From positions 3,534,001 through 3,598,000 of the forward strand of contig NZ_CP107772.1 in the NCBI RefSeq assembly GCF_036345155.1: DNA of 64,000 bases, in the 5' to 3' direction. The position numbers and the translations under genes are program-made. Each line of letters begins with the position of its first letter. The first letter of the stretch is position 1. Below are positions 16,017 through 30,044 of the stretch, in pieces. This DNA is from Streptomyces sp. NBC_00582 (GTDB taxonomy: Bacteria > Actinomycetota > Actinomycetes > Streptomycetales > Streptomycetaceae). A model generated the notes under the pieces. It was not told the origin of the DNA. It did no database searches and worked only from the letters and a program-made list of their open reading frames with translations.

Positions 16017-17990
16017 TCAGATCTCGCGACCGGCCCGGTGTCCGTGGACGATGGCGATCTCGATGTCCCGCGGCTGGTAGCAGTCACCGATCGCCTGGAC
16101 GTCCGGGTGCTGCTTCGCCAGCTGTCGGTAGAGCGAGTCGTCCGCGATGCCACCGGCGGCTACGACGACGGTGTCGATGCCTTCGATGGTGTCGGGCTCC
16201 CAGGTGACGACATTGAACGTGGTGACCGATCCGTCTTCGATCTCATGGATCGCGGTGTGGGTCTGCAGCTCGACTCGGGGGCTGTTCATGAGCGCTTCGA
16301 GCAGATGGTGTCGCGCGGGCGACGGCATTTCGGGGGCCACGGTCTCCATCCCGGTCACGAACCTGACGTTGTGTCGCTTGGCGGCGAGGTGGTCGGCTGT
16401 GGTGGCCCCTTCCGCCCGGCCGCCGACGTCGAACACAAGCACGTTCGTACCGGCCACGGTGTGGTCGGCGAGGACTTCTCGCGCAGTGTGCACGTGCGGG
16501 AGGTTTGCGCCGGTCACCTCCGGAACGAAGGGCGTGGACCCGGTGGCGACGAGGATGACGTCGGGAGACTCGGCCAGAACGGTCTTCGCGTCGGCCTCCA
16601 CGCCGAGCCGGATATCCACCCCGACCTTCGGCAGCTGCCGTTCGAACCAGAGGATGACCTCCTCGAAGTTGCCGCGTTTCGGTGTCGTCATGACGAGATT
16701 GACCTGGCCGCCCATGCGCTGGCCGCGTTCGAAGAGGACCACCTCGTGTCCCCGCGTGGCAGCGGTGCGGGCCGCCTCCATGCCGGCCGGCCCGGCGCCG
16801 ACGATGACGACCCGCTTCGGTGCGTGAACCGGATCCAGCTCTCCCCACGCCTGTTCCCGGCCGGTGACGGGGTTGTAGATGCACCCGACGCCAAGACCTT
16901 TGTCGACATGGCCGACGCAGGACTGGGTGCAGGCGATGCAGGTGCGGATGTCGTCGGTGCGACCTTCCCGCGCCTTGTTCGGGAAGTGCGGGTCGGCGAT
17001 GAGGGTCTTCGCCATTCCGACGATGTCGAGCTTTCCGTCGGCGATGCTCTGCTCCGCGAAGGCGGGTGAGTCCTGACGACCCGCTCCGGTGATCGGCAGT
17101 TCGATGCCGGCGTCCTTCATGGCCTCGGACAGGTGGACGAAGGCTCCGGTCTCGAAGTAGTGGCTGGGCCAGTGCGCGCGACCGCTTCGAGGGACGGAGG
17201 TGATGGCCTGCCAGATGCTGATGTAGTCGACGAGTTGCTCCGCTTCGAGGATCTTCGCCAGCTCGATGTGCTCGGGCAGACTCATGCTGTAGTCCACACC
17301 GTCGTCGTAGAGCCGGACGCCGAGAATCCGGTCCTTGCCGATGCCTTCGCGCGTCACCTCGAGCACTTCGTTGAGGAACGTCATCCGTTCACTCAGGTCA
17401 TGGCCGCCGTACTTGTCGTCGCGGCGGTTGCCGTGCGGGTGCAGGAAGTTGGCGAACAGGTAGTCCATGCCGATGGCGAGCTCGATCCCGTCGAAGTCGC
17501 AGCGACGCATGCGGTGCGCGGCGGCGCCGAACGACTCGACGATCCCTTCCACTTCGCCGGTCGACAGCTCGTGGGGCATGAACAGGGGCACCGAATACTC
17601 GGGGGTCGGGACCGGCGACGGGGCGACGATGTCACGACGAAGGAATCCGGCGTGATCCATGAGCCGACGTCCACGGTGGCCGAGCTGCGCGATGAGGGGG
17701 ACGTCGAACTCGTGGCACCCCTGCGCCATCTTGCTGAACGCGTCCATGGTCGCGTCGCCGTAGGTGGCCAGCGAGAGTGAGGCGTCGCCGTCGTAGACGG
17801 GAACCGTGTGTCCGGTGACGATGACACCGGCGCCGCCCTTGGCCCGTTCGCGAACGTAGTAGGCGTACGCATCGGTCGGGGTGCCGTCCCCCAGTTGGAA
17901 GTGTGCGGCGTGACCGGTGTTCATGATCCTGTTTTTCAGGATGTACGGACCTACCTGAATCGGGCTGAAGAGGTTCGGGAAGTCTGTCAT
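16017..17990 (-). CDS. Fe-S flavoprotein ene-reductase (2,4-dienoyl-CoA reductase/OYE family)
   Basis: A 657-residue protein of the FMN/[4Fe-4S]/FAD family that includes 2,4-dienoyl-CoA reductase and trimethylamine dehydrogenase. Residues 1-340 form the OYE-type FMN barrel (FSPIQVGPYILKNRIMNTGH at the N-terminus; AQLGHRGRR; HPHGNRRDDKYGG). The cluster ligands are in CIACTQSCVGHVDKGLGVGC (C-x2-C-x3-C-x11-C). The C-terminal half is an FAD/NAD(P)H module (VVIVGAGPAGMEAARTAA; late AIGDCYQPRDIEIAI). It would reduce a carbon-carbon double bond with NAD(P)H. The ATG at 17990 has CCAGGA upstream. It lies downstream of an APC permease on the same strand and next to the LysR-controlled molybdenum-hydroxylase cluster. 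That suggests a ring-reduction step, comparable in logic to 6-hydroxynicotinate reductase; this role is inference. Confidence 0.87.
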   Translation of the reverse strand: MTDFPNLFSPIQVGPYILKNRIMNTGHAAHFQLGDGTPTDAYAYYVRERAKGGAGVIVTGHTVPVYDGDASLSLATYGDATMDAFSKMAQGCHEFDVPLIAQLGHRGRRLMDHAGFLRRDIVAPSPVPTPEYSVPLFMPHELSTGEVEGIVESFGAAAHRMRRCDFDGIELAIGMDYLFANFLHPHGNRRDDKYGGHDLSERMTFLNEVLEVTREGIGKDRILGVRLYDDGVDYSMSLPEHIELAKILEAEQLVDYISIWQAITSVPRSGRAHWPSHYFETGAFVHLSEAMKDAGIELPITGAGRQDSPAFAEQSIADGKLDIVGMAKTLIADPHFPNKAREGRTDDIRTCIACTQSCVGHVDKGLGVGCIYNPVTGREQAWGELDPVHAPKRVVIVGAGPAGMEAARTAATRGHEVVLFERGQRMGGQVNLVMTTPKRGNFEEVILWFERQLPKVGVDIRLGVEADAKTVLAESPDVILVATGSTPFVPEVTGANLPHVHTAREVLADHTVAGTNVLVFDVGGRAEGATTADHLAAKRHNVRFVTGMETVAPEMPSPARHHLLEALMNSPRVELQTHTAIHEIEDGSVTTFNVVTWEPDTIEGIDTVVVAAGGIADDSLYRQLAKQHPDVQAIGDCYQPRDIEIAIVHGHRAGREI

Positions 17991-18151
17991 GTAAGAGTCC
18001 TGGGTCTTGTGCTCGGTCGTGGCGCCGGCCGGTCGTTGAGCCGAGTCGTCCCTGCGCTCGCCGGCGCAGGGACACTCCGGTCGACGTTCATCTCTCGCGA
18101 CTGGCTGGTCCGTGTCGCGTGGCGCCGAGGGTCGGGTGCGCTGCCGGACGG

Positions 18152-19804
18152 CTAAACCGGGTTGGCCGTCCGCATCTCGCGGGACTCGAGGTTGAGTTCG
18201 CCGTCGCTCGGGGCGTACTGCTGTGCCTTCTCGGTCGGCAGCCGCGTCGCGATCGCCAGGTGGTAGACGGCGAGACTGAAAGCGACCATGACCGCGGTGT
18301 CCCAGTAGGGGAACGACAGGTAGCCCAGGCCGCTGGGGTGGCTGGCTTGGCCGAAGGTGCCCATGTAGCTGATGGCCGCTGTCCCCAGGATCCAGATCCA
18401 CACCCACCAGGAAGAGCGGAAGTCGAGGTCGGGTCGGTCCTCGGCTTGCTGGAAGCCACGGTTGACGAAGAACACCGCGTAGCCGGTGGCGATGGCGACG
18501 AAGACCTTCCAGTCCGTTTCCCAACCGGTCCAGTACACGAGGAGGTTGGCCGCAGCGAAGCCCAGAGGCGCCCAGAGACCAGCCGGTCTGAGTCTGAAGG
18601 GACGGGCCGCGTCGGGGAATGAGCGCCGGAGCGACCCGAGCGCGATGGGAACGCCTGCCCACAGCATGGCCGTCGCGGAAGTGAGGAATCCGAGGAGGGA
18701 CTGCCAGCTCGGGAACGGCAGCAGGCACAGCAGGCCGACCACGAAACTGATGATCACGCCGATGACGGGGACGCCACGCTTGTCGACGCGAGTGACCACG
18801 TCGGGGATGTACCCGTTGCGCCCCATCCCGTAGGTGACTCGCGCGGTCGAGGTGACGTAGGCGATTCCGTTGCCGGACGGGGAGACGACGGAGTCGATGT
18901 AGACGATCGCGGCGATCAGGCCCAAGCCGAGAGACGTGGCCAATGCCGCGAACGGACCAGTGGTGACGTCGACGCTGGTTCCTTCCCAGCCGTGCGCCAG
19001 TTTCGCGGGTGAGAGCGCGCCGATGTACGCGACCTGAAGGCCTATGTAGAGGATCGAGCAGACCACAAGGGAGCCGAGGAGCGCGAACGGTATGTTCCCG
19101 CCGGGGTTCTTGGTCTCGGCGCCGAGCTGAACGGCCTGCTCGAAGCCGGTGTAGGCGAACACGATGCCGCCGATGGCGACAGCGGCCAGCACGCCGTGGA
19201 AGCCGTAGGGCGCGAAGCCGTGAGAGTGGAAGTTCGACGGTTGGAAGCGGGCGAACAGGACAGCCACGATGACCAGCACGATGGTGCCGATCTTCCACCA
19301 GGTGATCGCGTTGTGAACTCGGCCCAGGGCCTTGATCGCGAACAGGTTGAGCACGACGAAGATCGCCAACAGTGAGACGGCGACGACATAGCCGAGCGGG
19401 GTCAGGGTCCCGTCGGCGTGGAACAGGTTCAGGTGCGTGTACCCCTCGGCGTAGCTGAGGACGCCCTCGACCTCGATGGGGGCGGTCGCCGCTCCGTAGA
19501 TCCAGGCCATCCAGCCGATACCGAATCCGGCGAGGGTGCCGTGGGAGTAGTGGACGAACCGGGCCGAGCCTCCGGCCACGGAGAACATCGCGCCCAACTC
19601 CGCATGGTTGAAGGCGATGAGTACGAGAATCGCGATCGCGACAAACCAAGCGAGCAGCGCCGCTGGGCCGGCAATGGCGGCAGCGTTCATCGCACTGAAC
19701 AGCCACCCCGTTCCGATGATCGAGTTGATCGTGATCTGAAGGATGTTCATGCGGGACAGTTGGCGTGTGAGGCCCTGCGGGGCTACATCGACACTCGCAC
19801 TCAC
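18152..19804 (-). CDS. APC superfamily permease of the N-heterocycle/amino acid cluster
   Basis: A 550-residue membrane transporter with about 12-13 hydrophobic helices. The first helix contains INSIIGTGWLFSAMNAA, the APC signature region; a later FAYTGFEQAVQLGAETKNPGGNIP matches the helix 6 and intracellular loop of the family in pieces, and MGRNGYIPDVVTRVDKRGVPV is the conserved loop before helix 9. The GTG start at 19804 follows TAGGAGA. The gene ends about 160 bases before the ene-reductase, so both are probably one transcript. The LysR gene lies upstream. It probably imports the substrate degraded by the cluster; the compound is unknown. Confidence 0.88.
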   Translation of the reverse strand: MSASVDVAPQGLTRQLSRMNILQITINSIIGTGWLFSAMNAAAIAGPAALLAWFVAIAILVLIAFNHAELGAMFSVAGGSARFVHYSHGTLAGFGIGWMAWIYGAATAPIEVEGVLSYAEGYTHLNLFHADGTLTPLGYVVAVSLLAIFVVLNLFAIKALGRVHNAITWWKIGTIVLVIVAVLFARFQPSNFHSHGFAPYGFHGVLAAVAIGGIVFAYTGFEQAVQLGAETKNPGGNIPFALLGSLVVCSILYIGLQVAYIGALSPAKLAHGWEGTSVDVTTGPFAALATSLGLGLIAAIVYIDSVVSPSGNGIAYVTSTARVTYGMGRNGYIPDVVTRVDKRGVPVIGVIISFVVGLLCLLPFPSWQSLLGFLTSATAMLWAGVPIALGSLRRSFPDAARPFRLRPAGLWAPLGFAAANLLVYWTGWETDWKVFVAIATGYAVFFVNRGFQQAEDRPDLDFRSSWWVWIWILGTAAISYMGTFGQASHPSGLGYLSFPYWDTAVMVAFSLAVYHLAIATRLPTEKAQQYAPSDGELNLESREMRTANPV

Positions 19805-20315
19805 GCTGTCTCCTAGTCGCTCGTGGTGAGGTGGGGCTGAGGTGGCTCGCGACCCCGGTACGCGACGTGACGAGCACGCGCTTTGCAGACATCGAGGCCC
19901 CGGGCCCCCGATCAGCGTGGGGCCAAGTCACGCACGTCCCGCCCTCCAGGTAAAGCGGGGAAAGATGGATGGAACCGTTAAGAAATGCTTCTTGTTCCGC
20001 CGGGGCACACCGCCAGAATCCGTTGACCGACGTTCGGCGTGTTGTGCGGCCGAAAGAGCCCCGCCAGGTGTTCCTGGCGGGGCTTTCGTGATCACGCCGG
20101 CGCCAGGGTGGGCGCGTAGACGTCGTGGTCAGGGTCGTGCCGGGTCGGTGGGCATGGGGATGTCGTCCCGGACGCGGCGCAGCGTGCGTCGCCCTCGTCG
20201 ACGATGGCCTTGCCCTCGGTCAGCGGCGAGCAGCGCCGCCCGGCGAAGGCCCACGGCACCCACGGCAAGATCATCGGACACCGGGCGAGACAGCGGGTTG
20301 ATGACCCGCAGGGTC
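19805..20315. other. Intergenic region with possible gene debris
   Basis: A 511-bp gap between the permease start and the LysR end. It holds the permease promoter, a hairpin at 20057-20084, and a minus-strand stretch (about 20100-20290) where two frames together read like a frameshifted protein end (VRDDIPMPTDPARP, then HDVYAPTLAPA-stop). The family was not recognised. Confidence 0.45.
20057..20084. terminator. Hairpin terminator between LysR and the permease
   Basis: A perfect 12-bp stem AGCCCCGCCAGG / CCTGGCGGGGCT with a TGTT loop, followed by TTTC on the plus strand and preceded by GAAAG, so it can act in both directions. Confidence 0.8.
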
Positions 20316-21239
20316 CTAACGGTTGGTGATGCTGGGCCTGCTGTGCTGGTAGGCCTGCCGGAGTGCGCCGCGCACGGCGACGAGCGCGGGGTTGCGGTGT
20401 GAGCCGGCCCGGCAGGTCGTGACGATTTGCCGTACGTGCGAGGCCGCCATCTGGCGCAGGTGGAACCGCGGTTCGCGGTCGAACCATGTGAGGTCCGGCA
20501 GGAACGCCGCCGCGTGGCCGCTCGCGACGAGTTGCGTTTGCACCAGTACGTCAGGGGTTTCGTGTGCCACTCTCGGTTCGAAGCCGGCTTGGCGGCAGGT
20601 GGCCATGGCCCAGTACCGTCCCGGGCTGCCTTCTGGTTCGAGAACCCAGGGACAGTCGGCAAGGTCGGCAAGAGCCACCTCGCTCGGTTCGCGTCCTTCG
20701 GGCGGTCGCAAGAACGCGACGCGGATGGGATCTTCGGCAACCACGTCGAAGTTCATCTCGCTCGAGCGGTTGGTCGGATGGTCGACGTAGTTCTCACCGC
20801 AGACCAGATCGAACTCGCGCGCCAGTAGACCGGGCAGGGCGACTTCGGGCTCGGCTTGGGTCAGCTGCACCTGTAGTCCGGGGTGGCCCTCCGCCAGCGA
20901 GGTCAGCATCGCGGGCACGAGTGCGAGCGCGGCCGTCTGGATCGTGGCGAGTCTGATCGTACCCACGACGGTGTCCAGCGACGCGAGGATGTCTGTCTCG
21001 GCACGCTCCAACTGCTCCAGCACGGCGGCTGTGTGAGCGACGAGGATGTGCGCCTGCTCGGTGAGTCTGATGCGCCGGCCGTCCGGCTCGAAAAGCCTCG
21101 TTCCGATCTCTTCCTCGAGCACGGCCAGCTGTTGGGAGACGGCTGACGGGCTATAGGCCAGCGCGGCCGCGACCGAGGTGACGGTGCCACGTTGCGCCAG
21201 CTCTCGAAGCAACCGCATGCGGTGGAGATCGAACTTCAC
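20316..21239 (-). CDS. LysR family transcriptional regulator
   Basis: A 307-residue LysR regulator. Residues 1-60 form the winged HTH (MRLLRELAQRGTVTSVAAAL, then SPSAVSQQLAVLEEEIGTRLFE). The rest is the two-lobed effector domain, with IRLATIQTAALALVPAML, FDLVCGENY and VLVQTQLVASGHAAAFLPDL. It starts about 700 bases from, and divergent to, the catabolic genes that begin at 21942, the standard arrangement for a LysR activator and its target operon. It therefore probably senses a pathway intermediate and controls the tautomerase-to-XdhC operon and perhaps the permease/ene-reductase pair. Confidence 0.9.
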   Translation of the reverse strand: MKFDLHRMRLLRELAQRGTVTSVAAALAYSPSAVSQQLAVLEEEIGTRLFEPDGRRIRLTEQAHILVAHTAAVLEQLERAETDILASLDTVVGTIRLATIQTAALALVPAMLTSLAEGHPGLQVQLTQAEPEVALPGLLAREFDLVCGENYVDHPTNRSSEMNFDVVAEDPIRVAFLRPPEGREPSEVALADLADCPWVLEPEGSPGRYWAMATCRQAGFEPRVAHETPDVLVQTQLVASGHAAAFLPDLTWFDREPRFHLRQMAASHVRQIVTTCRAGSHRNPALVAVRGALRQAYQHSRPSITNR

Positions 21240-21735: not shown

Positions 21736-21960
21736 ATGCATTCCCGGGTGGCCGCGGTCACGGGCGGGTCGAGCGGACTCGGAGAGGCCGCGGAGCGACG
21801 CCTGGCCGCCGACGGATACGACGTCGCGACGAAGACCAGGGAGTTCGGCAACGGTGTGCGCGCGACGGTCGGCGGATCACCGTGGATCCGTCCGGTGGGC
21901 AAGCCGACCGCGACGGGTGCTCGTTCGGACGGGAGTGTGCTGTGCCGCTGGTGGATGTGA
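21736..21960 (+). pseudogene. Chimeric remnant: SDR N-terminus joined to an AA_synth-like fragment
   Basis: A 74-codon frame with a good ribosome binding site (AAAGGAG). Residues 1-34 are the start of a short-chain dehydrogenase/reductase: RVAAVTGGSSGLGEAAERRL contains the TGxxxGLG cofactor loop. It then switches abruptly to EFGNGVRATVGGSPWIRPVGK, which closely resembles the segment EFGQGVRDAVGGEAWISSVSK in the neighbouring AA_synth protein (22127-22699). It ends inside the start of the tautomerase gene. The likely origin is a deletion between an SDR gene and a duplicated AA_synth gene. It cannot encode a working enzyme of either family, but its translation may feed ribosomes into the overlapping tautomerase start. 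Confidence 0.7.
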
Positions 21961-22130
21961 CGTGGTACGAGGGGCGCTCGCACGAGCAGAAGGAGGAGCT
22001 CGCGCGCGCGATCTGCGAGGCCTTCGTGGAGATCGGCGACGCACGTCCGGACACGGTCCACGTGATCTTCCGAGACATAGACCCCGCGCAGTGGTTCAAG
22101 TCGGCAGGACTGTTGGAGGAAGAGCGATGA
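21942..22130 (+). CDS. 4-oxalocrotonate tautomerase-like protein
   Basis: A 62-residue tautomerase. The protein starts with GTG followed directly by CCG, so removal of the initiator exposes the catalytic N-terminal proline (PLVDVTWYEGR), the defining feature of the family. SHEQKEELARAICEAF is the conserved helix and TVHVIFRDIDPAQWF the second strand, with Arg in the usual region. It overlaps the end of the SDR remnant and ends in an ATGA overlap with the next gene. Such enzymes move double bonds between enol and keto or enamine and imine forms; here it could isomerise a ring-opened or reduced heterocycle intermediate. Confidence 0.82.
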   Translation: MPLVDVTWYEGRSHEQKEELARAICEAFVEIGDARPDTVHVIFRDIDPAQWFKSAGLLEEER

Positions 22131-22699
22131 CCCTGCGGATCCGCAAGATCCTGACCGTCCGGGAAGAGACCCGGTCCGAGGGCGGCCAGGACGCCGACCG
22201 ACCTCTCGTCAAGGCGGCCGCGATCGCCGTGCTGAGCAACCCCTACGCCGGCCTGCCCTACTCCGACGGCCTCGCGGCCATCACCGACGACAACTACGAA
22301 CTCGGGCACTTGTTGGCCTCCACCGCTGCCGAGACGCTCGGACTCGAGGTCGAGGGATACGGCAAGGCATCCCTCGTGGGCGTCAACGGTGAGATCGAGC
22401 ACGGCGTCGCACACAAGATCGGCGAGTTCGGCCAGGGCGTCCGCGACGCGGTGGGCGGCGAGGCGTGGATCTCCTCGGTCAGCAAGCGCTGCGGCCCCGG
22501 CGTACAGATCGACGTCCCCCTTGCCTACAAGGACGAGATCTGGGTCCGCTCGCACTACGACGCCTTCACCCTCTTCGTCCCCGACGCACCGCTCGCGAAC
22601 GAGGTGGCCGTCATCGTGGCCGTCTCCTCCCGCGGCCGGCTCAACGACCGCGTCGGCGGCATGACGGTCGAGGACGTGAAGAACCAGGAGACGTCATGA
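22127..22699 (+). CDS. AA_synth (DUF1185) family protein
   Basis: A 190-residue protein of the amino acid synthesis family (PF06684). This name is historical and no general reaction is established. Motif cues include VREETRSEGG near the N-terminus, AAIAVLSNPYAGLPYSD, GEIEHGVAHKIGEFGQGVRD, the conserved KRCGPGVQIDVPLAYKDE and SHYDAFTLFVPDAPLANEVA. ATGA overlaps on both sides place it firmly in the tautomerase-enamidase operon. Its constant company with a cyclic-amide-type hydrolase suggests a catabolic role on a small carboxylated compound; that is inference. A fragment of a second copy lies at the end of the SDR remnant upstream. Confidence 0.72.
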   Translation: MTLRIRKILTVREETRSEGGQDADRPLVKAAAIAVLSNPYAGLPYSDGLAAITDDNYELGHLLASTAAETLGLEVEGYGKASLVGVNGEIEHGVAHKIGEFGQGVRDAVGGEAWISSVSKRCGPGVQIDVPLAYKDEIWVRSHYDAFTLFVPDAPLANEVAVIVAVSSRGRLNDRVGGMTVEDVKNQETS

Positions 22700-23847
22700 G
22701 CACCCTCGACATCATCAATCTCGCCGGCGCCGTCAGCGGCCGGCTCGGTGACCCGCTCATGGAGATCGAATCGGTCCGCTGCGTCGACGGGAAGATCGCG
22801 GCGCTCGGCGTCGACGGTGAAGCCGGCGACGCCGACGTCACCCTCGACGCCAACGGCGCGATCCTCACCCCGGGCCTCATCGACACCCATGTGCACGTCA
22901 CCTTCGGCGACTGGACTCCCCGACAGCAGACCGTCGGCTGGATCGAGAGCTACCTGCACGGCGGCACGACCCTGATGATGTCGGCCTCCGAGATCCACGT
23001 CCCCGGGCGTCCCAGCGACCGCGCCGGCCTCAAGGGCCTCGCGATCGCAGCGCAGAGATCCTGGGAGAACATCCGTCCGGGCGGCGTCAAGGTGCTCGGG
23101 GGTTCGGTCATCATCAGCCCCTCCCTGAAGGAAGAGGACTTCGCGGAGCTCGCCGCCGAGCGCGTCGGCCTGGCGAAGGTGGGATTCGGTGCCTTCGAGA
23201 GCCAGTCGGAGGCAGCCCCGCTGGTACGCGCAGCCCAGGCCGCCGGGTTCATCGTCATGAACCACACAGGCGGCGCGTCCGTTCCCGGGTCCGCGGCCGT
23301 CTCGGTCGACGACGTCATCGCGCTCGGCTGCGACATCGTCGGCCATGCGAACGGCGGCACTACGTCCCTTCCCGACGAGCATCTCAAGGCCGTCTTCGAG
23401 GCGCCCGGAGCTCTCCAACTGGTTCAGGCCGGCAACCTGCGCTCCAGCCTGCTGATGCTCGAGATCGCCAAGGAGCGCGACGAGCTCGACCGCATCCTGA
23501 TCGCCACCGACTCGCCCACCGGCACCGGCGTGATGCCGCTCGGCATGATCAAGACGGTCGCCGAGTTCTCCTCTCTCGGTGGCCTCAGCGCCACGGACGC
23601 CCTCGCGCTCGCCACCGGGAACGGCGGCCGGGTGCTTCGCCGCCGCGAGGGCATCATCGAGACCGGCCGCCCCGCCGACCTCGTACTCATGCAGCCTCCC
23701 AGCGGAGGCGTCGCCACCGACGCGCTCTCCGCCATCGAGCGCGGGGACATCCCCGGCATCGGCGGTGTCGTCATCGACGGCGAGGTCCGAGCGCTGCGTT
23801 CCCGCAACACCCCCGCCCCGGCCAGGCTCGCGACCCAACGGTCCTGA
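22696..23847 (+). CDS. Enamidase-like amidohydrolase
   Basis: A 383-residue metal-dependent amidohydrolase. Metal ligands include the DTHVHV motif (His65, His67) on strand 1, histidines in IVMNHTGG and DIVGHANGG, and Asp in IATDSPTGTGVMPLG. The pattern, especially HANGGTTSL and TDSPTGTGVMPLGMIK, resembles the enamidase of Eubacterium barkeri nicotinate fermentation. That enzyme hydrolyses 1,4,5,6-tetrahydro-6-oxonicotinate to 2-formylglutarate and ammonia. It starts in an ATGA overlap with the AA_synth gene. In this cluster it would hydrolyse a reduced N-heterocycle made by the molybdenum hydroxylase and ene-reductase. The E. barkeri comparison is from memory of the family, not from alignment. 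Confidence 0.78.
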   Translation: MSTLDIINLAGAVSGRLGDPLMEIESVRCVDGKIAALGVDGEAGDADVTLDANGAILTPGLIDTHVHVTFGDWTPRQQTVGWIESYLHGGTTLMMSASEIHVPGRPSDRAGLKGLAIAAQRSWENIRPGGVKVLGGSVIISPSLKEEDFAELAAERVGLAKVGFGAFESQSEAAPLVRAAQAAGFIVMNHTGGASVPGSAAVSVDDVIALGCDIVGHANGGTTSLPDEHLKAVFEAPGALQLVQAGNLRSSLLMLEIAKERDELDRILIATDSPTGTGVMPLGMIKTVAEFSSLGGLSATDALALATGNGGRVLRRREGIIETGRPADLVLMQPPSGGVATDALSAIERGDIPGIGGVVIDGEVRALRSRNTPAPARLATQRS

Positions 23848-23875
23848 CTCTTTCCCGATGCGCAAAGGACACGCC

Positions 23876-24379
23876 GTGGACCTGAAGACACTTCGTACGA
23901 CCGACCAGCGGTGGGAGATCGCCCTCCTGAGCGGCCCCAACACCACCAGCCAATTCCAGCCTGCCGACGAGTTCGAGCGTGAGCTGCGGACGTGGGGTGA
24001 CAGCCTCGGGATCGCGGTTCGGCACGTCCAGTCCAACCACGAGGGCAAGCTGCTCGAATACGTCCACGCGAACGCCGGCCAGGTCAACGGGTTCCTCGTG
24101 AACCCCGGCGGCCTGGTGCGCGTCGGCGAGTCCTTGCGGCACGTCCTCAAGGACGCCAGGAAACCCGCCATCGAGCTGCACCTGAGCCAGGAGGAGCTCC
24201 GAGGCGAATCGATCTTCGCCCCCAGCGTCACCGGAATCTTCGCCGGTCCCGGCCGGCACGCGGTCCTGGGAGCCCTGGTGGCCCTCTCCCTCGCGCTCGA
24301 CGACCTCGACTTCCTCAACCCCGAGGGAACAAGCGAGATCAACCGCTACCACGGCAACCCACGCTCTCTCTACGGCTGA
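23876..24379 (+). CDS. Type II dehydroquinase-like protein A (catalytic loop missing)
   Basis: A 167-residue flavodoxin-like protein of the type II 3-dehydroquinate dehydratase (AroQ) family. Conserved pieces are ALLSGPN on strand 1, QSNHEGKLLEYVH, GFLVNPGGL and IELHLSQEEL, the last with the histidine equivalent to AroQ His101. The flexible loop that in true enzymes carries the essential Arg and Tyr (RxxxxYG after GPN) is replaced by TTSQFQPAD, so it is not a normal dehydroquinase. The GTG at 23876 was chosen for the AAAGGA site 7 bases before it; an in-frame ATG at 23858 lacks one. It is followed after 14 bases by a second paralogue that does keep the loop, so the two may form a mixed oligomer. 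Confidence 0.78.
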   Translation: MDLKTLRTTDQRWEIALLSGPNTTSQFQPADEFERELRTWGDSLGIAVRHVQSNHEGKLLEYVHANAGQVNGFLVNPGGLVRVGESLRHVLKDARKPAIELHLSQEELRGESIFAPSVTGIFAGPGRHAVLGALVALSLALDDLDFLNPEGTSEINRYHGNPRSLYG

Positions 24380-24393: not shown

Positions 24394-24882
24394 ATGACCA
24401 ACACGGACACCGCAGACACCGCGGGCGCCGAGGACGGCAGGCGCCTCCGTTTCGCGCTGCTCAACGGCCTGAACATGACCAATCTCGGCCGACGCGACAG
24501 GAACATCTACGGGAGCATCGCCTCCCTCCAGGCGCTCGAAGACCTGGTCACCGGGGTCGGCGACGCCGTCGGTGTCGACGTGACCGCCTTCCACTCCAAC
24601 CACGAAGGCGACCTCGTCGACTTCCTCGAGGCCAACCCGGACATGGACGGCTACATCATCAACCCCGGCGGGCTCTGGGCATTCGGCGACCCCACTCGCA
24701 TCGCCCTGGAGGAGACCGGCAGGCCGTTCGTCGAGGTGCACTTCGCCAATATCTTCGCGACCGGGCACCTCTCCACGTTCACCCGGTCCTGCGACGCGAC
24801 CGTCATGGGGCTGCGTCACCACGGCTACCTCGGAGCAGTCGTCGCGCTGGCCGCATCGGTCCGCGCAGCCGCCAGGAACTGA
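24394..24882 (+). CDS. Type II dehydroquinase-like protein B
   Basis: A 162-residue AroQ-family protein. Strand 1 and the lid loop read LLNGLNMTNLGRRDRNIYGS, keeping the Arg and Tyr expected in the active loop. SNHEGDLVDFLEAN, YIINPGGL and VEVHFANI keep the Asn and His positions. However, the substrate-binding THTSxAL segment is WAFGDPT, and the Arg after the EVH strand (AroQ Arg108 position) is lost, so quinate-type substrate binding is not expected. GGAGG precedes the ATG by 6 bases. Lying in tandem with protein A inside a catabolic operon, it is more likely a lyase/hydratase for a pathway intermediate than a shikimate enzyme. Confidence 0.8.
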   Translation: MTNTDTADTAGAEDGRRLRFALLNGLNMTNLGRRDRNIYGSIASLQALEDLVTGVGDAVGVDVTAFHSNHEGDLVDFLEANPDMDGYIINPGGLWAFGDPTRIALEETGRPFVEVHFANIFATGHLSTFTRSCDATVMGLRHHGYLGAVVALAASVRAAARN

Positions 24883-24982
24883 CCACGGTTCCGCAACCCG
24901 TACACCCCGGATCGATATGCCGAACACTCAACGCCGAGACGCCCATGGTCCAGACGCAGGAGCCATGACAAGGAGGACGGAG

Positions 24983-25855
24983 ATGTCCGAGCTCGACGTC
25001 GGCGGCTACAGGCGGCCCGACAACCTTTCCGAACTCCTGACCCTGCTGGACCGCCGCCCGGCGTCGGTGCTCGCCGGCGGCACCGACCTCGTCGTGATGC
25101 GTGCCGACGGGACGGTAGACCGCGCACACGACATCGTCGACATCAAGGGCGTCCCCGACCTGCGGGGGATCAGTCTCGACGCGGACGGCACGCTCACCAT
25201 CGGCGCCGCCACCTCCTTGCGGGAGCTGGCCAAGACGACCGTCATACCGCCCAACGCGATCACCGACGGAGCCGCGCTCGTCGGCGGCTGGCAGACCCGC
25301 GCACGCGGAACGATCGGGGGCAACATCTGCCGGGCCTCACCGGCAGGCGACACCCTCCCCGGGGTACTGGCAGCAGACGCTCAACTGGAACTCGCCTCCA
25401 CCACCGGGACACGACTGGTGCCAGGACACGACTTCTTCACCGGGCCGGGCCGGACGGTCCGCGAACCCGATGAGCTGCTCACACGGATCATCGTTCCCGC
25501 GTCCTTCGGCGCCTCCGCATATCTGCGGTTCACCTATCGTCTCGCGATGGACTTGGCCGTCGTCGGCGTGGCAGCCCATCTGGAGATCGAGAACGGACGC
25601 TGCGTCGCCGCCCGGGTGGCGCTCGGCGCCGCCGCGGCCACCCCTGTGCTGGCCCCCGACGCCGCCGACGCGCTCGTCGGGACGGAGCTGGACGAAGCCT
25701 CCGTCGAGGCCGCCGCCCAGCTGGTGCTCAACACCGCCACCCCCATCGACGACGGCCGGGGCTCACGTGCCCACCGGCGCACCGTGCTACCAGTGCTCGC
25801 CAAGCGCGCGATCGGCATCGCGCTCGAGCGGGCGCGAGGAGGACACCAACGATGA
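24983..25855 (+). CDS. Molybdenum hydroxylase FAD-binding (medium) subunit
   Basis: A 290-residue FAD subunit of a xanthine dehydrogenase/CO dehydrogenase-type hydroxylase (CoxM class). The FAD-binding motifs are VLAGGTDLVVMRADG (residues 30-44), IGAATSLRELAKT and TIGGNICRASPAGDTLP, followed by the CO_deh_flav_C domain with FGASAYLRFTYRLAMDLAVVGVAA in pieces. The ATG at 24983 has AAGGAGG at ideal spacing; upstream in-frame ATGs are 5' of this site. It hands electrons from the 2Fe-2S subunit to an external acceptor. It overlaps the next gene by ATGA. Confidence 0.92.
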   Translation: MSELDVGGYRRPDNLSELLTLLDRRPASVLAGGTDLVVMRADGTVDRAHDIVDIKGVPDLRGISLDADGTLTIGAATSLRELAKTTVIPPNAITDGAALVGGWQTRARGTIGGNICRASPAGDTLPGVLAADAQLELASTTGTRLVPGHDFFTGPGRTVREPDELLTRIIVPASFGASAYLRFTYRLAMDLAVVGVAAHLEIENGRCVAARVALGAAAATPVLAPDAADALVGTELDEASVEAAAQLVLNTATPIDDGRGSRAHRRTVLPVLAKRAIGIALERARGGHQR

Positions 25856-26325
25856 CTGCACGCATGACCCTGCGCGTCAACGGCTCGGACCACGACATCG
25901 CGGTCGCGCCCGACACGCTGCTCCTGGACGCCCTCCGGTACGAATGCGGCCTCACCGGCGCGAAGCTCGGATGCGGCACCGGCGACTGCGGTGCGTGCAC
26001 CGTCACCGTCGACGGCGAAGCGGTCAACAGCTGCCTCATGTACGTGCTGGAATGCGAAGGACACTCGGTGGAGACGGTCGAAGGCGTCACCGCGGGCGGG
26101 ATCGGCGCCATCGTCGCCGAGGAGTTCGTGAAGGCCGACGCCGTCCAGTGCGGCTTCTGCAGCCCCGGAATCATCATGTCGACCTGCGCGCTGCTCGCCA
26201 GAACCGAACCAGGAGCGGCCACCGACGAGGACATCAAGGAAGCGCTCGCCGGCAATCTGTGCCGCTGCACCGGCTACCTGCCGATCCTGGACGCCGTCCG
26301 GCGAGCGAGCGGGGCACCGCGATGA
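25852..26325 (+). CDS. Molybdenum hydroxylase 2Fe-2S (small) subunit
   Basis: A 157-residue iron-sulfur subunit (CoxS class) with two [2Fe-2S] clusters. The plant-ferredoxin-type N-terminal domain uses C41-x4-C46-x2-C49-x11-C61 (LGCGTGDCGACTV ... NSC). The C-terminal helical domain uses QCGFCSPG and LCRCTGY. All eight cysteines are present, so the subunit should be functional. ATGA overlaps join it to the FAD and molybdenum subunits. Confidence 0.95.
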   Translation: MTARMTLRVNGSDHDIAVAPDTLLLDALRYECGLTGAKLGCGTGDCGACTVTVDGEAVNSCLMYVLECEGHSVETVEGVTAGGIGAIVAEEFVKADAVQCGFCSPGIIMSTCALLARTEPGAATDEDIKEALAGNLCRCTGYLPILDAVRRASGAPR

Positions 26326-28667
26326 GCGCAGAAGAGTCCGACCAGTACCTGAACGTCGGCACCCGGCTCATCCGCCGCGACGCGGCCGAGCGCCTCACCG
26401 GCCACACCGCCTACACCGAGGACATCCGCCTCCCGGGGATGCTCTACGGCGTCCTCGTGCAGTCGCCCGTCGCGGCCGGCCGGCTCCGCCGCATCGACGT
26501 CGACCGGGCAGCGGCACTCGACGGGGTCGTCAAGGTACTGACGGCCGAGGACGTGACGGACCGCCGCTACGGGAACTACGTCAAGGACCAGCCGATCTTC
26601 GCCCGTGACCGGGTCAGGTTCGTCGGCGAACCCGTCGCGCTGGTCGCGGCCACCTCCCTGGCCGTCGCCCGCCGAGCGGCAGGCCTGGTCGAGGTCGACA
26701 TCGAGGCGACCACACCCGTCGTCGACCTCCGAGAGGCACTGACGAGCACCGAGGTGCTGGTGCACGACCGAGACACGAACGTCATCGAGGACGTCCACAT
26801 CTCGCGAGGCGACGTCGACGCCGTCTTCCATACGGCACACGCCGTGGTGCACACCGAGATCGAGTCGCACCGGGCACACCAGGCCTACCTGGAACCACGA
26901 GCCGTGACCGCCGCGCCCGCACCCGGCGGGTTCTCGCTGATCATGAGCACCCAACAGCCGTTCGGGGTACGCGCCCAGCTCGCCGAGCTGTTCGACCTCC
27001 CCACCGGCGCCATCGAGGTGCGGGTGCCCGCCATCGGCGGCGGCTTCGGCGGCAAGCTGCACCTGCTGTTCGCACCCCAGGCAACCGCGATGACCCTGGC
27101 CACCGGTCGCCCCGTCCAGATCGTCTGCTCCCGCGCGGAGGACATGGCGACCGGCAACCCGCGCGAGAACTCGATCGTGCGCATGTCCAGCGCGGTCGAC
27201 GAATCGGGCCGCATCCTGGCCCGCAGGTGCGACGTCGTGCTCGACGCCGGCGCGTACGCGATGGACACCCCCGTCCTGACCTCGATGGCCGCGTTCTACG
27301 CGACCGGCCCCTACCGCATCGACACCCTCGACATCCGAGGACGTGCGGTCTACACCAACACCTGTCCCACCGGCTCGTTCCGCGGCCCGTCCGGCCCGCA
27401 GATGGTCTACGCCGCCGAGGCCCAGATCGAGGACATCGCCCAACAACTCGGGCTCGACCCCGCAGAGGTCCGACGACGCAACTTCATCGGCGAAGGCGAC
27501 CGCGGCCCCACCGGCGAGCTCATCACCCTCCGCGGGACGACCGAGGAGTGCATGCGGGTCGTCGAGAGCCGCCTCCAGCGATGGCGGCAGGCCGACGTCG
27601 CCCCGGGCGACCACCGGCGACGCGGCTACGGGCTCGCCTGCGCATGGTGGTCCACCCTCGGCACGCCGTCGGCCGCGGCCGTCGAACTGCACGAGGACGG
27701 CACCGCGACGCTCTCCTCGGGCGGAACCGAGATCGGGACCGGCGCCATCTCGACCGCCTTGCCGAGCATGGTCGCCGAAGAGCTCGGACTGCGGCTCGAC
27801 CGCGTCATCCTGAAGTCCGGCGGCACCCGGGACTCACCCTACGACTCAGGCTCCCGTGGCAGCCGCACCATGTTCGCCACCGGCAACGCCACGGTCCTCG
27901 CCGCTCGCGCCGTCGCCGAGCAGATCAGGAACGAAGCGTCACGGCTGCTCGAGGTCGACCCTGCCGACCTGGTGCTCCGCGAAGGGCGTGTCGAGGTCAA
28001 GGGCGCCCCGGAGACCGGCATGACCATCGCCGAAGTGTCCGCATCCGCTCACCTGCATTCCGGCCCGGTGGTCGCGACCGGTCGATACCGAGCAGAGCTC
28101 GCCCCCGTCGAAGGCTCCGACCTGCAGGGCGCCCGCTTCCTCAGACTGGGTGAGCCCACCTTCCACTGCCACGGCGTGGAGATCGCCCTGGACGAGGAGA
28201 CCGGACGCGTCGACGTCCTCAACTTCGTCGCCGTCCATGACGTCGGCAGGGTCGTCAACCCCGTCGGCGCACGCGGACAGGTCGAGGGAGGCGTTGTGCA
28301 GGGCATCGGCTACGCCCTGACGGAGAACCTCCGGACAAACGACGCGGGCGTCATCGTCAACGGCAACCTCCACGACTACCGGCTTCCGACCATCGCCGAC
28401 GTACCGCCGAACATCGAGACCGTCTTCATCGAGACCAACCACTCGCACACCGGACCGTTCGGAGCCAAGGGCCTGGGCGAGCCGCCGGTGATCCTCCCGG
28501 CGGCGGCCATCGGATCGGCGCTCCGTGACCTCCTCGGAGTACAGCCGTACCACCTTCCCCTGGATGCGGACCGGGTTGTCCTCACGATGGCCGAGCGGGG
28601 CTCTCGTCCGGCGCCGGGGTCGCCTCCGTCGACAGCGCGCCCACCGAAACCGGAGGTCGGGGGGTGA
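26322..28667 (+). CDS. Molybdenum hydroxylase catalytic (large) subunit
   Basis: A 781-residue molybdenum-cytosine-dinucleotide-type subunit of the xanthine dehydrogenase/CoxL superfamily. The ald_Xan_dh N-terminal domain (residues 1-140) contains TGHTAYTEDIRLPGMLYG. The molybdopterin-binding part has GGGFGGKLH, TGSFRGPSGPQ, SGGTEIGTG and DVGRVVNPVGARGQVEGG in pieces, and the active-site glutamate in GAKGLGEPP. The CO dehydrogenase CSFR active-site loop is absent: TGSFRGPSGPQ is the corresponding segment and has no selenyl-cysteine-type Cys, so it is a hydroxylase of carbon atoms next to a ring nitrogen or of aldehydes, not a CO dehydrogenase. Substrate by context: an N-heteroaromatic compound such as a pyridine carboxylate. 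The C-terminal end is proline/serine-rich. Confidence 0.92.
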   Translation: MSAEESDQYLNVGTRLIRRDAAERLTGHTAYTEDIRLPGMLYGVLVQSPVAAGRLRRIDVDRAAALDGVVKVLTAEDVTDRRYGNYVKDQPIFARDRVRFVGEPVALVAATSLAVARRAAGLVEVDIEATTPVVDLREALTSTEVLVHDRDTNVIEDVHISRGDVDAVFHTAHAVVHTEIESHRAHQAYLEPRAVTAAPAPGGFSLIMSTQQPFGVRAQLAELFDLPTGAIEVRVPAIGGGFGGKLHLLFAPQATAMTLATGRPVQIVCSRAEDMATGNPRENSIVRMSSAVDESGRILARRCDVVLDAGAYAMDTPVLTSMAAFYATGPYRIDTLDIRGRAVYTNTCPTGSFRGPSGPQMVYAAEAQIEDIAQQLGLDPAEVRRRNFIGEGDRGPTGELITLRGTTEECMRVVESRLQRWRQADVAPGDHRRRGYGLACAWWSTLGTPSAAAVELHEDGTATLSSGGTEIGTGAISTALPSMVAEELGLRLDRVILKSGGTRDSPYDSGSRGSRTMFATGNATVLAARAVAEQIRNEASRLLEVDPADLVLREGRVEVKGAPETGMTIAEVSASAHLHSGPVVATGRYRAELAPVEGSDLQGARFLRLGEPTFHCHGVEIALDEETGRVDVLNFVAVHDVGRVVNPVGARGQVEGGVVQGIGYALTENLRTNDAGVIVNGNLHDYRLPTIADVPPNIETVFIETNHSHTGPFGAKGLGEPPVILPAAAIGSALRDLLGVQPYHLPLDADRVVLTMAERGSRPAPGSPPSTARPPKPEVGG

Positions 28668-28792
28668 AGTGGTTCCAGAGCCTGGTGCGCTTCCTCAGCG
28701 GCGCCTTCGACGGCGTCACCAAGGCATGGAGCAAGGGCGACCCCTCGTCGCCGCCGGAGCCGCCGTCGCCGCCGGTCACGCCCCCGTGGTGA
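28664..28792 (+). CDS. Small 42-residue protein coupled to the molybdenum subunit
   Basis: A short gene not seen by length-limited gene callers. Its GTG overlaps the large-subunit stop as GTGA, with GGAGG 7 bases upstream. The product has an amphipathic N-terminal helix (MKWFQSLVRFLSGAFDGV) and a proline/serine tail (SSPPEPPSPPVTPPW). It resembles no family known to me. The exact four-base overlap and good ribosome binding site are the same signals used throughout this operon, so translation is likely. It may be a membrane tether, assembly factor or regulator for the hydroxylase. Confidence 0.6.
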   Translation: MKWFQSLVRFLSGAFDGVTKAWSKGDPSSPPEPPSPPVTPPW

Positions 28793-28892
28793 GACACCTG
28801 ACGCCGGGTGCCCATCCAAGCTCAGCCGGCCACCGTCACCGCGACGGCCGGATCGTCGGAGCCCGCCCCTCACCTCCACGGAGACAGGCCCC

Positions 28893-30044
28893 ATGCTGAA
28901 CATCGCGCGGACACTGCTCTGCTGGTTGCGCGACACACGCCCCTTCGCCCTGGCCACCGTCGTCGACGTCCGCGGCAGCGCACCCCTGCCCATCGGCACA
29001 GCCGTAGCGGTGAACGCGGACGGCGACGCGGTCGGCAGCGTCTCCGGCGGCTGCGTCGAGGGCGCGGTCTACGACATGTGCCGGCAAGTGCTTCGCGAGG
29101 GGGGCACCCCTCACCGTGCCCGGTTCGGGTATTCCGACGACGACGCCTTCGCGGTGGGCCTGACGTGCGGCGGCGAACTCGATGTCCTCGTCCAGGCTGT
29201 CGATCCCGCGGCGCAGTCGCACATCGGCGCGGCCCTCGACGAGGTTGTGCAGGGCCTGCCCGTCGCCGTGGCCCAGGTCGTGGACGGGCCGGCCGATCTC
29301 CTCGGGGCGACACTCGGCGTTCTCGGGGACGGCCAGGTCATCTCCGGGACGCTGGACAACGGCCCGGTGGACACCGTGGTGGTGGACGAGGCCCTTGCCC
29401 TGCTGCGCGCGGGGCGCACCGCCCGCGTCACGCTGGGCGGGACCGGACAGGGCTGCCCAGGGCCACTGTCCGTCCTCGTGCATGTCCACGCGTCCCGCCC
29501 GCGCATGCTGGTTTTCGGCGCCGTGGACTTCGCCGCCGCTCTCAGCCAGGCCGGGGCCTTCCTGGGCTACCGGGTCACGGTGTGCGACGCCCGGCCCGTC
29601 TTCGCCACCGCGGCGCGCTTTCCGTACGCGGACGAGGTCGTGGCCGACTGGCCCCACCGCTACCTGGAACGCACCGAGGTGGACGCGCGTACCGCCGTGT
29701 GCGTCCTCACTCACGACGCGAAGTTCGACGTTCCCCTGCTGCGTCTGGCGCTGGCCCTGCCCGTCGGCTACATCGGCGCCATGGGATCCAGGCGTACCCA
29801 CGACGAACGCCTGCGCCTGCTGCGGGAAGAAGGCGTGAGCGAAGAACAGCTGGCCCGGCTGTGCTCCCCGATCGGCCTGGACCTCGGTGCGCGCACACCC
29901 GAGGAGACGGCGGTGTCCATCACAGCGGAGATCATCGCCCGGATCGGCGGGGGCACGGGCCTGCCCCTGTCCCGGGGCACGGGCCCGATCCACCACACCG
30001 CGCCGCTGGTCACAGGCCCGCGATCACGTTCCAGCGCCGGGTGA
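28893..30044 (+). CDS. XdhC/CoxI family molybdenum cofactor insertion protein
   Basis: A 383-residue XdhC-type chaperone, which binds and matures (sulfurates, protects) the molybdenum cofactor before its insertion into xanthine dehydrogenase-type enzymes. The N-terminal XdhC_CoxI domain contains ATVVDVRGSAPLPIGTAVAV in pieces, GSVSGGCVEGAV and GLTCGGELDVLV, with the two conserved cysteines. The C-terminal Rossmann domain has RMLVFGAVDFAAALSQ, VLTHDAKFDVPLL and YIGAMGSRRTHDERL. It follows the three hydroxylase subunits and the small gene. Its last 35 bases run antisense into the end of the potD-like gene, and the last residues do not look conserved, suggesting the original end was lost or moved at an insertion boundary. 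Confidence 0.9.
   Translation: MLNIARTLLCWLRDTRPFALATVVDVRGSAPLPIGTAVAVNADGDAVGSVSGGCVEGAVYDMCRQVLREGGTPHRARFGYSDDDAFAVGLTCGGELDVLVQAVDPAAQSHIGAALDEVVQGLPVAVAQVVDGPADLLGATLGVLGDGQVISGTLDNGPVDTVVVDEALALLRAGRTARVTLGGTGQGCPGPLSVLVHVHASRPRMLVFGAVDFAAALSQAGAFLGYRVTVCDARPVFATAARFPYADEVVADWPHRYLERTEVDARTAVCVLTHDAKFDVPLLRLALALPVGYIGAMGSRRTHDERLRLLREEGVSEEQLARLCSPIGLDLGARTPEETAVSITAEIIARIGGGTGLPLSRGTGPIHHTAPLVTGPRSRSSAG

What the first reader, a model, noticed from the sequence alone, without database searches (positions are those of the whole stretch)
16017..30044. Candidate new N-heteroaromatic degradation system
One locus combines a three-subunit molybdenum hydroxylase with XdhC, an Fe-S ene-reductase, an enamidase-like hydrolase, a Pro1 tautomerase, an AA_synth-family protein, two dehydroquinase-like proteins, an APC permease and a LysR regulator. 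The order hydroxylation, ring reduction, enamide hydrolysis matches the logic of anaerobic nicotinate fermentation, but here in an aerobic actinomycete with extra, unassigned enzymes. I know no described Streptomyces pathway with this set.
Basis: partly seen in the sequence, partly recalled or inferred. Interest (0 to 1): 0.85.

Follow-up and report, generated by a model that had tools for sequence, protein, structure and literature searches.

The report
Mobile N-ring-opening gene cluster
A Streptomyces gene cluster, whose core is shared with plasmids of distantly related soil bacteria, probably breaks open a nitrogen-containing ring compound, but marker residues and a missing key enzyme suggest that it is not the known nicotinate pathway that it resembles.

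Summary
The gene set is real and lies where stated (16017-30044). It is not a chance neighbourhood: three named Streptomyces carry it, and two alphaproteobacterial plasmids (Mesorhizobium pWSM4875, Shinella p3_Teo12) carry its core at 42-66% identity: AA_synth, enamidase-like, both dehydroquinase-like genes, Mo hydroxylase, OYE-type flavoenzyme.

The nicotinate reading is weakened. Aerobic nicotinate breakdown via THON is already in print. Three plasmid clusters that I read with a labelled 6-hydroxynicotinate reductase have a Glu-type enamidase, like the E. barkeri enzyme. The window's enzyme has Lys there, as do the seven others from clusters with the dehydroquinase-like pair, and its genome has no such reductase. 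The 'ene-reductase' lacks FadH's NADPH motif and lies near ETF genes in several relatives. The dehydroquinase-like pair has lost dehydroquinase active-site residues. A Brevibacterium-like genome keeps AA_synth, enamidase and the pair without close Mo hydroxylase or OYE homologs.

Best reading: a mobile catabolic cluster opening a non-nicotinate N-heterocycle; substrate unknown, no reaction shown. Bonus: AA_synth (PF06684) is present in 53 of 72 enamidase loci, directly beside it in 47, suggesting that it finishes enamide hydrolysis.

The parts
16017..17990 (-). OYE/TMADH-family Fe-S flavoenzyme ('ER'); probable ETF-linked dehydrogenase, less likely an NAD(P)H ene-reductase
   Evidence: Pfam Oxidored_FMN + Pyr_redox_2 (on the longer open frame); best PDB match NCR 6qkg, E 1e-90; 64-66% identity to the Mesorhizobium and Shinella plasmid copies; lacks FadH NADPH motif
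18152..19804 (-). APC-family amino-acid-type permease, likely uptake
   Evidence: AA_permease_2 140 bits
20316..21239 (-). LysR regulator, divergent to the + strand genes
   Evidence: LysR_substrate + HTH_1; 61% identity to the LysR beside the Brevibacterium-like cluster
21736..21930 (+). scar: in-frame remnant of an SDR N-terminus joined to an inner piece of a second AA_synth
   Evidence: tblastn: SDR 72% over 32 aa, AA_synth 50% over 36 aa
21942..22130 (+). 4-oxalocrotonate-type tautomerase, Pro next to the GTG start
22127..22699 (+). AA_synth (PF06684) protein, proposed enamine/enol processing partner of the enamidase-like enzyme
22696..23847 (+). enamidase-like amidohydrolase, Lys type
   Evidence: 2vun E 9e-95 over full length; K161 where 2vun has E164
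23858..24379 (+). dehydroquinase-like protein A, first lid with Arg/Tyr deleted
   Evidence: family of 91 clusters
24394..24882 (+). dehydroquinase-like protein B, keeps the first lid, lost other active-site residues
24917..25855 (+). Mo hydroxylase FAD subunit
   Evidence: 54-58% identity to the plasmid copies
25852..26325 (+). Mo hydroxylase 2Fe-2S subunit
   Evidence: 54-56%
26322..28667 (+). Mo hydroxylase molybdopterin subunit
   Evidence: 63-64%
28893..30044 (+). XdhC-type protein, likely for Mo-cofactor insertion
   Evidence: XdhC_C 145 bits

Best explanation
A mobile catabolic cluster for a small, amino-acid-like N-heterocycle that is not nicotinate. The permease takes it up. The Mo hydroxylase oxidises the carbon next to the ring nitrogen to a lactam (inferred). 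The flavoenzyme, feeding ETF, dehydrogenates a C-N or C-C bond (inferred; a DMGDH-like oxidase occurs without it in the Brevibacterium-like genome). The dehydroquinase-like pair removes or shifts water to make the cyclic enamide (inferred). The enamidase-like hydrolase opens the ring (inferred from homology to 2vun). AA_synth and the tautomerase turn the released enamine/enol into a formyl acid and then a semialdehyde (inferred), oxidised by a semialdehyde dehydrogenase that is encoded in the two plasmid clusters but not among the genes of this one. Shown here: gene content, conservation, residue differences. Not shown: any reaction or the substrate.
For: Same core set on two plasmids of another phylum. 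Among 72,556 plasmid records the flavoenzyme is found at 60% identity or more in 2 of 433 matching records (still 2 of 611 at a looser limit) and DHQ-B at that level in 2 of 4. They are the same two records; these also hold DHQ-A at 55-56%, the Mo subunits, AA_synth and enamidase. Enamidase full-length homology to 2vun. Lys instead of Glu in 8 of 8 DHQ-type enamidases, the window's included; of 8 plasmid enamidase records read, the 3 with a labelled 6-hydroxynicotinate reductase are Glu and the 5 without are Lys; 2vun is Glu. No such reductase in the genome. ETF genes beside the flavoenzyme in L016, in pieces in L014, in the genome's second copy, and a few kb off in Shinella. Semialdehyde dehydrogenase above the SSADH cut-off in the Mesorhizobium cluster. 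Brevibacterium-like genome with AA_synth, enamidase, DHQ-A/B, SDR and DAO, while its best MoL and ER matches are 32% and 31%.
Against: The flavoenzyme's best solved relative is NCR, ahead of histamine and trimethylamine dehydrogenases, which fits a reductase; that NCR is a dearomatising 2-naphthoyl-CoA reductase is recalled. HxnT of Aspergillus is a precedent for an OYE enzyme reducing a hydroxypyridine (PMC9304392, passages). ETF adjacency may be one event in related Streptomyces; ETF is not beside the window copy, nor in L015 or the Mesorhizobium stretch. A Glu/Lys difference in amidohydrolases does not prove a change of substrate. No substrate is known to me for any DHQ-type cluster. APC, LysR, tautomerase and XdhC find no match at E 1e-5 in the plasmid stretches read, so only the core is shared. 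The window cluster has no semialdehyde dehydrogenase, intact SDR or DAO.
Confidence: 0.42

Rival explanations
1. One reading: nicotinate or another pyridine carboxylate is hydroxylated by the Mo hydroxylase, reduced by the OYE-type enzyme in place of the classical 6-hydroxynicotinate reductase, and opened by the enamidase.
For: Mo hydroxylase plus enamidase homolog in one locus; best solved relative of the flavoenzyme is NCR; AA_synth pairs occur in clusters with a labelled 6-hydroxynicotinate reductase; aerobic THON pathway exists (PMC3511419, passages); OYE enzyme HxnT reduces a hydroxypyridine in the Aspergillus nicotinate pathway (PMC9304392, passages).
Against: No 6-hydroxynicotinate reductase homolog; Lys-type enamidase; no FadH-type NADPH motif; two dehydroquinase-like proteins unexplained; the Brevibacterium-like genome lacks close Mo hydroxylase and ER homologs.
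Confidence: 0.3
2. A sharper form of the best explanation (its odds lie inside those): the substrate is a saturated, hydroxylated or N-methylated cyclic amine or imino acid. Amine dehydrogenation (flavoenzyme or DAO), imine oxidation to lactam by the Mo hydroxylase, alcohol oxidation by SDR and dehydration by the DHQ-like pair lead to the enamide.
For: DAO protein matches dimethylglycine dehydrogenase and sarcosine oxidase; ETF and ETF-QO annotated on the Shinella plasmid; SDR conserved in three clusters with a relic in the window; the flavoenzyme shares the missing NADPH motif with HpbA; amino-acid-type transporters in or near the clusters.
Against: The window's genome has no SDR match at E 1e-40 (150 of 176 candidates scored) and its best DAO match is 28%; Shinella's plasmid has no DAO match; all steps inferred.
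Confidence: 0.2
3. The enamidase-like protein is a general cyclic amide or imide hydrolase and the locus degrades a pyrimidine-, hydantoin- or imide-like compound.
For: Close enamidase homologs in Solirubrobacterales sit with other amidohydrolases, isochorismatase, DUF1989 and NMT1-type transporters; the AA_synth model has middling matches to barbiturase and cyanuric acid hydrolase.
Against: None of isochorismatase, DUF1989 or NMT1 is among the cluster's genes; AA_synth fold matches are tied with unrelated folds.
Confidence: 0.1

Closest known systems
Reductive nicotinate catabolism via THON (Eubacterium barkeri; aerobic Azorhizobium caulinodans; proposed for Bradyrhizobiaceae SG-6C)
   Same: Mo hydroxylase and enamidase homologs; AA_synth also present in three proteobacterial plasmid clusters that carry a labelled 6-hydroxynicotinate reductase
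   Different: No 6-hydroxynicotinate reductase in the genome, Lys-type instead of Glu-type enamidase, OYE-type flavoenzyme, two dehydroquinase-like proteins, tautomerase
Aspergillus nidulans hxn nicotinate pathway (PMC9304392, passages)
   Same: Mo hydroxylase (HxnS), OYE-family enzyme (HxnT), SDR (HxnW; relic here) and a hydrolytic opening of a reduced ring
   Different: Monooxygenases HxnX and HxnV and cyclic imidase HxnM in the fungus; no enamidase, AA_synth or dehydroquinase-like pair in the steps listed in the passages
DHQ-type cluster of Mesorhizobium sp. WSM4875 pWSM4875 and Shinella zoogloeoides Teo12 p3_Teo12 (no study found)
   Same: ER, DHQ-A, DHQ-B, three Mo subunits, AA_synth, enamidase
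   Different: They add SDR, semialdehyde dehydrogenase and an arylmalonate decarboxylase/maleate isomerase-like protein, plus DAO (Mesorhizobium) or RidA and ETF genes (Shinella); no match to tautomerase, APC, LysR or XdhC in the stretches read
Rhizobial LLM/flavin reductase/alpha-beta hydrolase/AA_synth/aldehyde dehydrogenase clusters, e.g. S. meliloti pSymA (trigonelline-type by recall)
   Same: AA_synth beside a hydrolase, with an aldehyde dehydrogenase
   Different: Different oxygenase and hydrolase folds; no enamidase or Mo hydroxylase in the stretches read
Type II dehydroquinase (AroQ)
   Same: Family PF01220; DHQ-B keeps the Arg/Tyr lid
   Different: THY histidine lost and second lid shortened in both; first lid deleted in A

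Membership tests
Reductive nicotinate (THON) pathway | 6-hydroxynicotinate reductase | tested here: not met
   Sulfitobacter protein annotated with that name finds nothing at E<=1e-5 in G000, G717, Mesorhizobium or Shinella records; the name is the record's own label and had no NCBIfam or Pfam match
Reductive nicotinate (THON) pathway | Enamidase of the Glu type, as in 2vun and in clusters with that reductase | tested here: not met
   Window K161/F164; 2vun and 3 of 3 reductase-linked enzymes E/L
Reductive nicotinate (THON) pathway | Mo hydroxylase acting on nicotinate | tested here: inconclusive
   Family membership met; best PDB relatives 4-hydroxybenzoyl-CoA reductase, 6-hydroxypseudooxynicotine dehydrogenase, quinoline oxidoreductase, with nicotinate dehydrogenase lower; specificity not readable
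Enamidase | Full-length homology and His/Asp residues of the metal site | tested here: met
   2vun E 9e-95; H65, H67, H190, H217, D272 conserved; their role as metal ligands is recalled
Enamidase | Hydrolysis of THON | not testable with these tools
   needs enzyme assay
NAD(P)H-dependent OYE/2,4-dienoyl-CoA reductase-type ene-reductase | FMN barrel, 4Fe-4S cysteines, FAD domain | tested here: met
   cysteine spacing read from the alignment
NAD(P)H-dependent OYE/2,4-dienoyl-CoA reductase-type ene-reductase | NADPH-binding GxGxxG of the second Rossmann domain, as in E. coli FadH | tested here: not met
   Gap there in the window, Mesorhizobium and Shinella proteins, as in HpbA; that this stretch of FadH binds NADPH is recalled
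ETF-linked amine dehydrogenase (TMADH/HpbA-like) | ETF genes beside the enzyme | tested here: inconclusive
   Present in L016, in pieces in L014, in the genome's second copy and a few kb off in Shinella; absent beside the window copy, in L015 and in the Mesorhizobium stretch
Type II 3-dehydroquinate dehydratase | First-lid Arg/Tyr, THY histidine and second lid (roles recalled) | tested here: not met
   A lacks the first lid in 4 of 4, B keeps it in 4 of 4; THY histidine lost and REEWR lid shortened in 8 of 8, some A proteins keeping an Arg there
PF06684 AA_synth | Profile match and fold | tested here: met
Rid/chorismate-mutase-like enamine-handling proteins (for AA_synth) | Shared fold beyond own family | tested here: inconclusive
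4-oxalocrotonate tautomerase | Pro right after the start codon (Pro-1) | tested here: met
   GTG-CCG start at 21942; Pfam 46.6 bits

The most novel reading that the evidence does not exclude
AA_synth (PF06684) proteins are the missing second half of enamide ring opening: they hydrolyse or tautomerise the enamine/enol released by the hydrolase, across many unrelated N-ring pathways, and a Rid protein can take their place. The dehydroquinase-like A/B pair is a heteromeric enzyme repurposed from shikimate chemistry to (de)hydrate an N-heterocycle, in a mobile pathway shared by Actinomycetota and Alphaproteobacteria whose substrate class has not been recognised.
Probability: 0.3. Interest if true: 0.75.

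Novelty: new variant of a known kind. Interest (0 to 1): 0.55.

Why it matters
It would add a ring-opening route for N-heterocycles whose core moves between phyla on plasmids. It would give a testable function to PF06684, whose structure paper (PMC2954203, abstract and passages) calls it a domain of unknown function and only suggests amino-acid metabolism; it is found on 386 of 72,556 plasmid records. It would explain a rare family that sources now name '3-dehydroquinate dehydratase'. The Glu/Lys marker, if it holds in a wider sample, gives annotators a simple way to keep these enzymes apart from nicotinate enamidase.

Tried and rejected
Rejected: the downstream aldehyde dehydrogenase (31425-32864) as the pathway's semialdehyde dehydrogenase; it passes the aminobutyraldehyde dehydrogenase subfamily cut-off and lies in a putrescine/GABA-type operon. 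Rejected: Shinella Teo12 as a clue to the substrate; the strain was isolated for TRIS growth, and the passages I saw place those genes on p2_Teo12 (PMC10848231, passages). Not helpful: papers on AA_synth with dehydroquinase (none); Mycolicibacterium HK-90 (unrelated listing); DHQ-A in 396 genomes of the phylum (beyond the window's own protein 13 genomes with 32-41% matches, ordinary AroQ by my reading); promoter and terminator scans (none); an operator guess (none). The viral structure library was not searched; from the E. coli collection only the fadH region was taken.

Results against the AA_synth idea: PMC9304392 (passages) calls the E. barkeri enamidase bifunctional, doing the deamination itself. 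PMC7913881 (passages) reports a PF06684 protein in a coumarin cluster, where no nitrogen is involved, and says that attempts to see an effect of it failed. AA_synth also sits beside an FAA hydrolase in Rhodococcus opacus. 19 of 72 enamidase loci lack AA_synth, 11 of them with long flanks on at least one side.

Weak points: Rid next to the enamidase where AA_synth is missing is seen in L034 and L036, a likely single event, and further off in L054; 3 of the 19 loci without AA_synth, found with one Rid query. The fold match of AA_synth to Rid is tied with unrelated folds. The 72 loci were found with two peptide patterns taken from close homologs, one covering residue 99, so the E99 count and the share of Lys are biased; the Glu/Lys comparison rests on 8 of the 25 plasmid enamidase records plus 2vun; the other 17 were not read. 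The joint clade of the Glu-type enzymes has support 0.16 only. In the tree five short sequences were dropped and deep supports are low (down to 0.36). Co-location of enamidase and DHQ-A in ten listed protein clusters is inferred from equal contig lengths only. DHQ-A's gap to AroQ is seen among 478 candidates that share exact words.
Full report
WHAT IS THERE. The window is bases 3534001-3598000 of an 11.1 Mb genome. The enamidase-like protein matches the solved E. barkeri enamidase 2vun over its full length (E 9e-95; 43% identity). Three named Streptomyces (S. turgidiscabies Car8, S. viridochromogenes NRRL 3413, S. caniscabiei) carry the same block (L014-L016; L014's contig ends before XdhC, and its permease is in two open frames). 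It is rare: an enamidase homolog is in 7 of 297 family genomes, the window's own included, and the other six are 48-50% identical.

CONSERVED ACROSS PHYLA. tblastn on 72,556 plasmid records found the flavoenzyme at 60% identity or more in 2 of 433 matching records (2 of 611 at a looser limit) and DHQ-B at that level in 2 of 4. DHQ-A covers at least 80% of the query in 2 of 12. The two records are the same each time: Mesorhizobium sp. WSM4875 pWSM4875 and Shinella zoogloeoides p3_Teo12. Both also hold AA_synth, enamidase (48%) and the three Mo subunits. ER is 64-66%, MoL 63-64%, DHQ-B 63-65%, DHQ-A 55-56%, AA_synth 42-43%. They add SDR, a semialdehyde dehydrogenase and an arylmalonate decarboxylase/maleate isomerase-like protein. 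Permease, LysR, tautomerase and XdhC find no match at E 1e-5 in the stretches read: the core is shared, not the whole block.

MODULES. Its best MoL and ER matches are 32% and 31%, so it lacks close copies of both. L017 (Actinomycetota MAG) has tautomerase, AA_synth, enamidase, DHQ-A, DHQ-B and DAO, then the contig ends. So AA_synth, enamidase and the DHQ pair are the constant part; Mo hydroxylase plus ER, DAO and SDR vary. The window keeps a scar of an SDR start joined to a piece of a second AA_synth (21736-21930). In the enamidase tree DHQ-type enzymes fall in three places: window, three Streptomyces and G717 together (support 1.0), L017 among Solirubrobacterales-type enzymes (0.88), Mesorhizobium and Shinella together (0.98) with an Agrobacterium vitis enzyme (1.0) (deep supports are low). 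This speaks for repeated assembly from parts.

MOBILITY. The same genome has a broken second copy at about C1:326.5-335.5 kb: ER (99.7%), APC (99.8%), LysR pieces and XdhC (98.5%), the middle being lost and other open frames, transposase-like by eye, in its place.

NOT THE NICOTINATE PATHWAY BY MEMBERSHIP. Aerobic nicotinate breakdown via THON is in print: PMC3511419 (passages) cites it for Azorhizobium and proposes it, from gene homology, for strain SG-6C. Of the 25 plasmid records with an enamidase homolog I read the surroundings in 8. Three (two Sulfitobacter, one Comamonadaceae) have a protein labelled 6-hydroxynicotinate reductase beside tandem AA_synth genes and UPF0280; the two Sulfitobacter also have Mo hydroxylase genes there. 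In those three and in 2vun the marker residue is Glu (E164 in 2vun); in the five others, as in the window, it is Lys. All 8 DHQ-type enamidases, the window's included, are Lys; among 78 aligned sequences 75 are Lys, 2 Glu, 1 gap. Sampling was by patterns from close homologs, so the 75 is not a census. The reductase has no match in the window's genome. That this residue bridges the two metals is inferred from its place and from recall.

THE 'ENE-REDUCTASE'. Solved relatives include NCR (308 bits, the best), dienoyl-CoA reductase (224), histamine (158) and trimethylamine (156) dehydrogenases. Against E. coli FadH the window, Mesorhizobium and Shinella proteins lack the GCGGIG NADPH motif, as does HpbA, annotated N-methyl-L-proline N-demethylase. 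ETF beta and alpha genes lie just downstream in L016, in pieces in L014, and in the genome's second copy; Shinella has ETF and ETF-QO a few kb away. L015 and the Mesorhizobium stretch do not. Against this, the OYE enzyme HxnT reduces a hydroxypyridine in the Aspergillus nicotinate pathway (PMC9304392, passages). I read the window enzyme as an ETF-linked dehydrogenase more likely than an NAD(P)H ene-reductase; it is not settled.

THE DEHYDROQUINASE-LIKE PAIR. DHQ-A lacks the ten-residue first lid with Arg/Tyr in 4 of 4; DHQ-B keeps it in 4 of 4. The THY histidine is lost and the second lid (REEWR) is shortened in 8 of 8, some A proteins keeping an Arg there, compared with three AroQ-like proteins (a fourth such row came out empty). 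Among 478 candidates from 5.8 billion proteins DHQ-A finds 91 clusters at E<=1e-20, the weakest at 5e-41, with names from Streptomyces, Mycolicibacterium, Brevibacterium, Agrobacterium, Rhizobium, Shinella and gammaproteobacterial MAGs. A dehydroquinase role is unlikely; a paired enzyme for another (de)hydration is my inference.

AA_SYNTH. Of 72 enamidase loci 53 have AA_synth; in 47 it lies within 150 bases of the enamidase frame, on the same strand. Of 25 plasmid records with enamidase at least 22 also have AA_synth (12 of the 25 are Sulfitobacter, not independent), against 386 of 72,556 records overall. The partners change: Rieske dioxygenase with LigB, HpaB, amidohydrolase/DUF1989/NMT1 sets. 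Without enamidase, AA_synth sits beside an alpha/beta hydrolase with flavin reductase, LLM and aldehyde dehydrogenase in two rhizobia and beside an FAA hydrolase in Rhodococcus. PMC7913881 (passages) calls TgnF of the trigonelline pathway a homolog that stimulates TgnE, but saw no effect of its own PF06684 protein. PMC2954203 (abstract and passages) solved the fold and suggests amino-acid metabolism. I propose that AA_synth acts on the enamine or enol left by enamide hydrolysis. The E. barkeri enamidase is described as deaminating by itself (PMC9304392), which speaks against a need for it there, and the fold comparison does not decide it.

VERDICT. A real, conserved, mobile catabolic cluster; the N-heterocycle class is likely, nicotinate less so; substrate unknown. 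Absence from print rests over open-access papers only.

Noticed in passing
L129 (own genome C1:317001-337000), about 9485-18492: A second, broken copy of the cluster: ER, APC and XdhC at 98.5-99.8% identity, LysR in pieces, middle lost and other open frames in place.
   Followed up: partly
window 21736-21930: In-frame chimera of an SDR start and an inner AA_synth piece, upstream of the tautomerase.
   Followed up: partly
L063, L076, L056, L065 and relatives: AA_synth-enamidase pair inside Rieske dioxygenase/LigB/DHDPS-like clusters of Aeromicrobium and Mycobacterium: possibly a bicyclic azaarene pathway.
   Followed up: no
L018-L032 and relatives: In Solirubrobacterales the enamidase, mostly with AA_synth, sits with isochorismatase, another amidohydrolase, DUF1989, class II aldolase and NMT1-type ABC transporter genes.
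   Followed up: no
L112 3048-3896, L133 4695-5624, L134 10753-11619: UPF0280 protein next to a labelled 6-hydroxynicotinate reductase and tandem AA_synth in 3 of 3 such clusters read: possibly an unrecognised nicotinate-pathway component.
   Followed up: no
L014 5247-6842: The APC permease gene of S. turgidiscabies Car8 appears as two open frames.
   Followed up: no
window 12501-15824: GH95-like glycoside hydrolase with ricin-B lectin domain.
   Followed up: no
window 30010-34921: Solute-binding protein, aminobutyraldehyde dehydrogenase, Lrp regulator and class III aminotransferase: putrescine/GABA-type operon beside the cluster.
   Followed up: partly
own genome C1:208936 and 10582174: Equal-scoring Mo-enzyme genes at mirror-image distances from the contig ends, as in terminal inverted repeats.
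   Followed up: no
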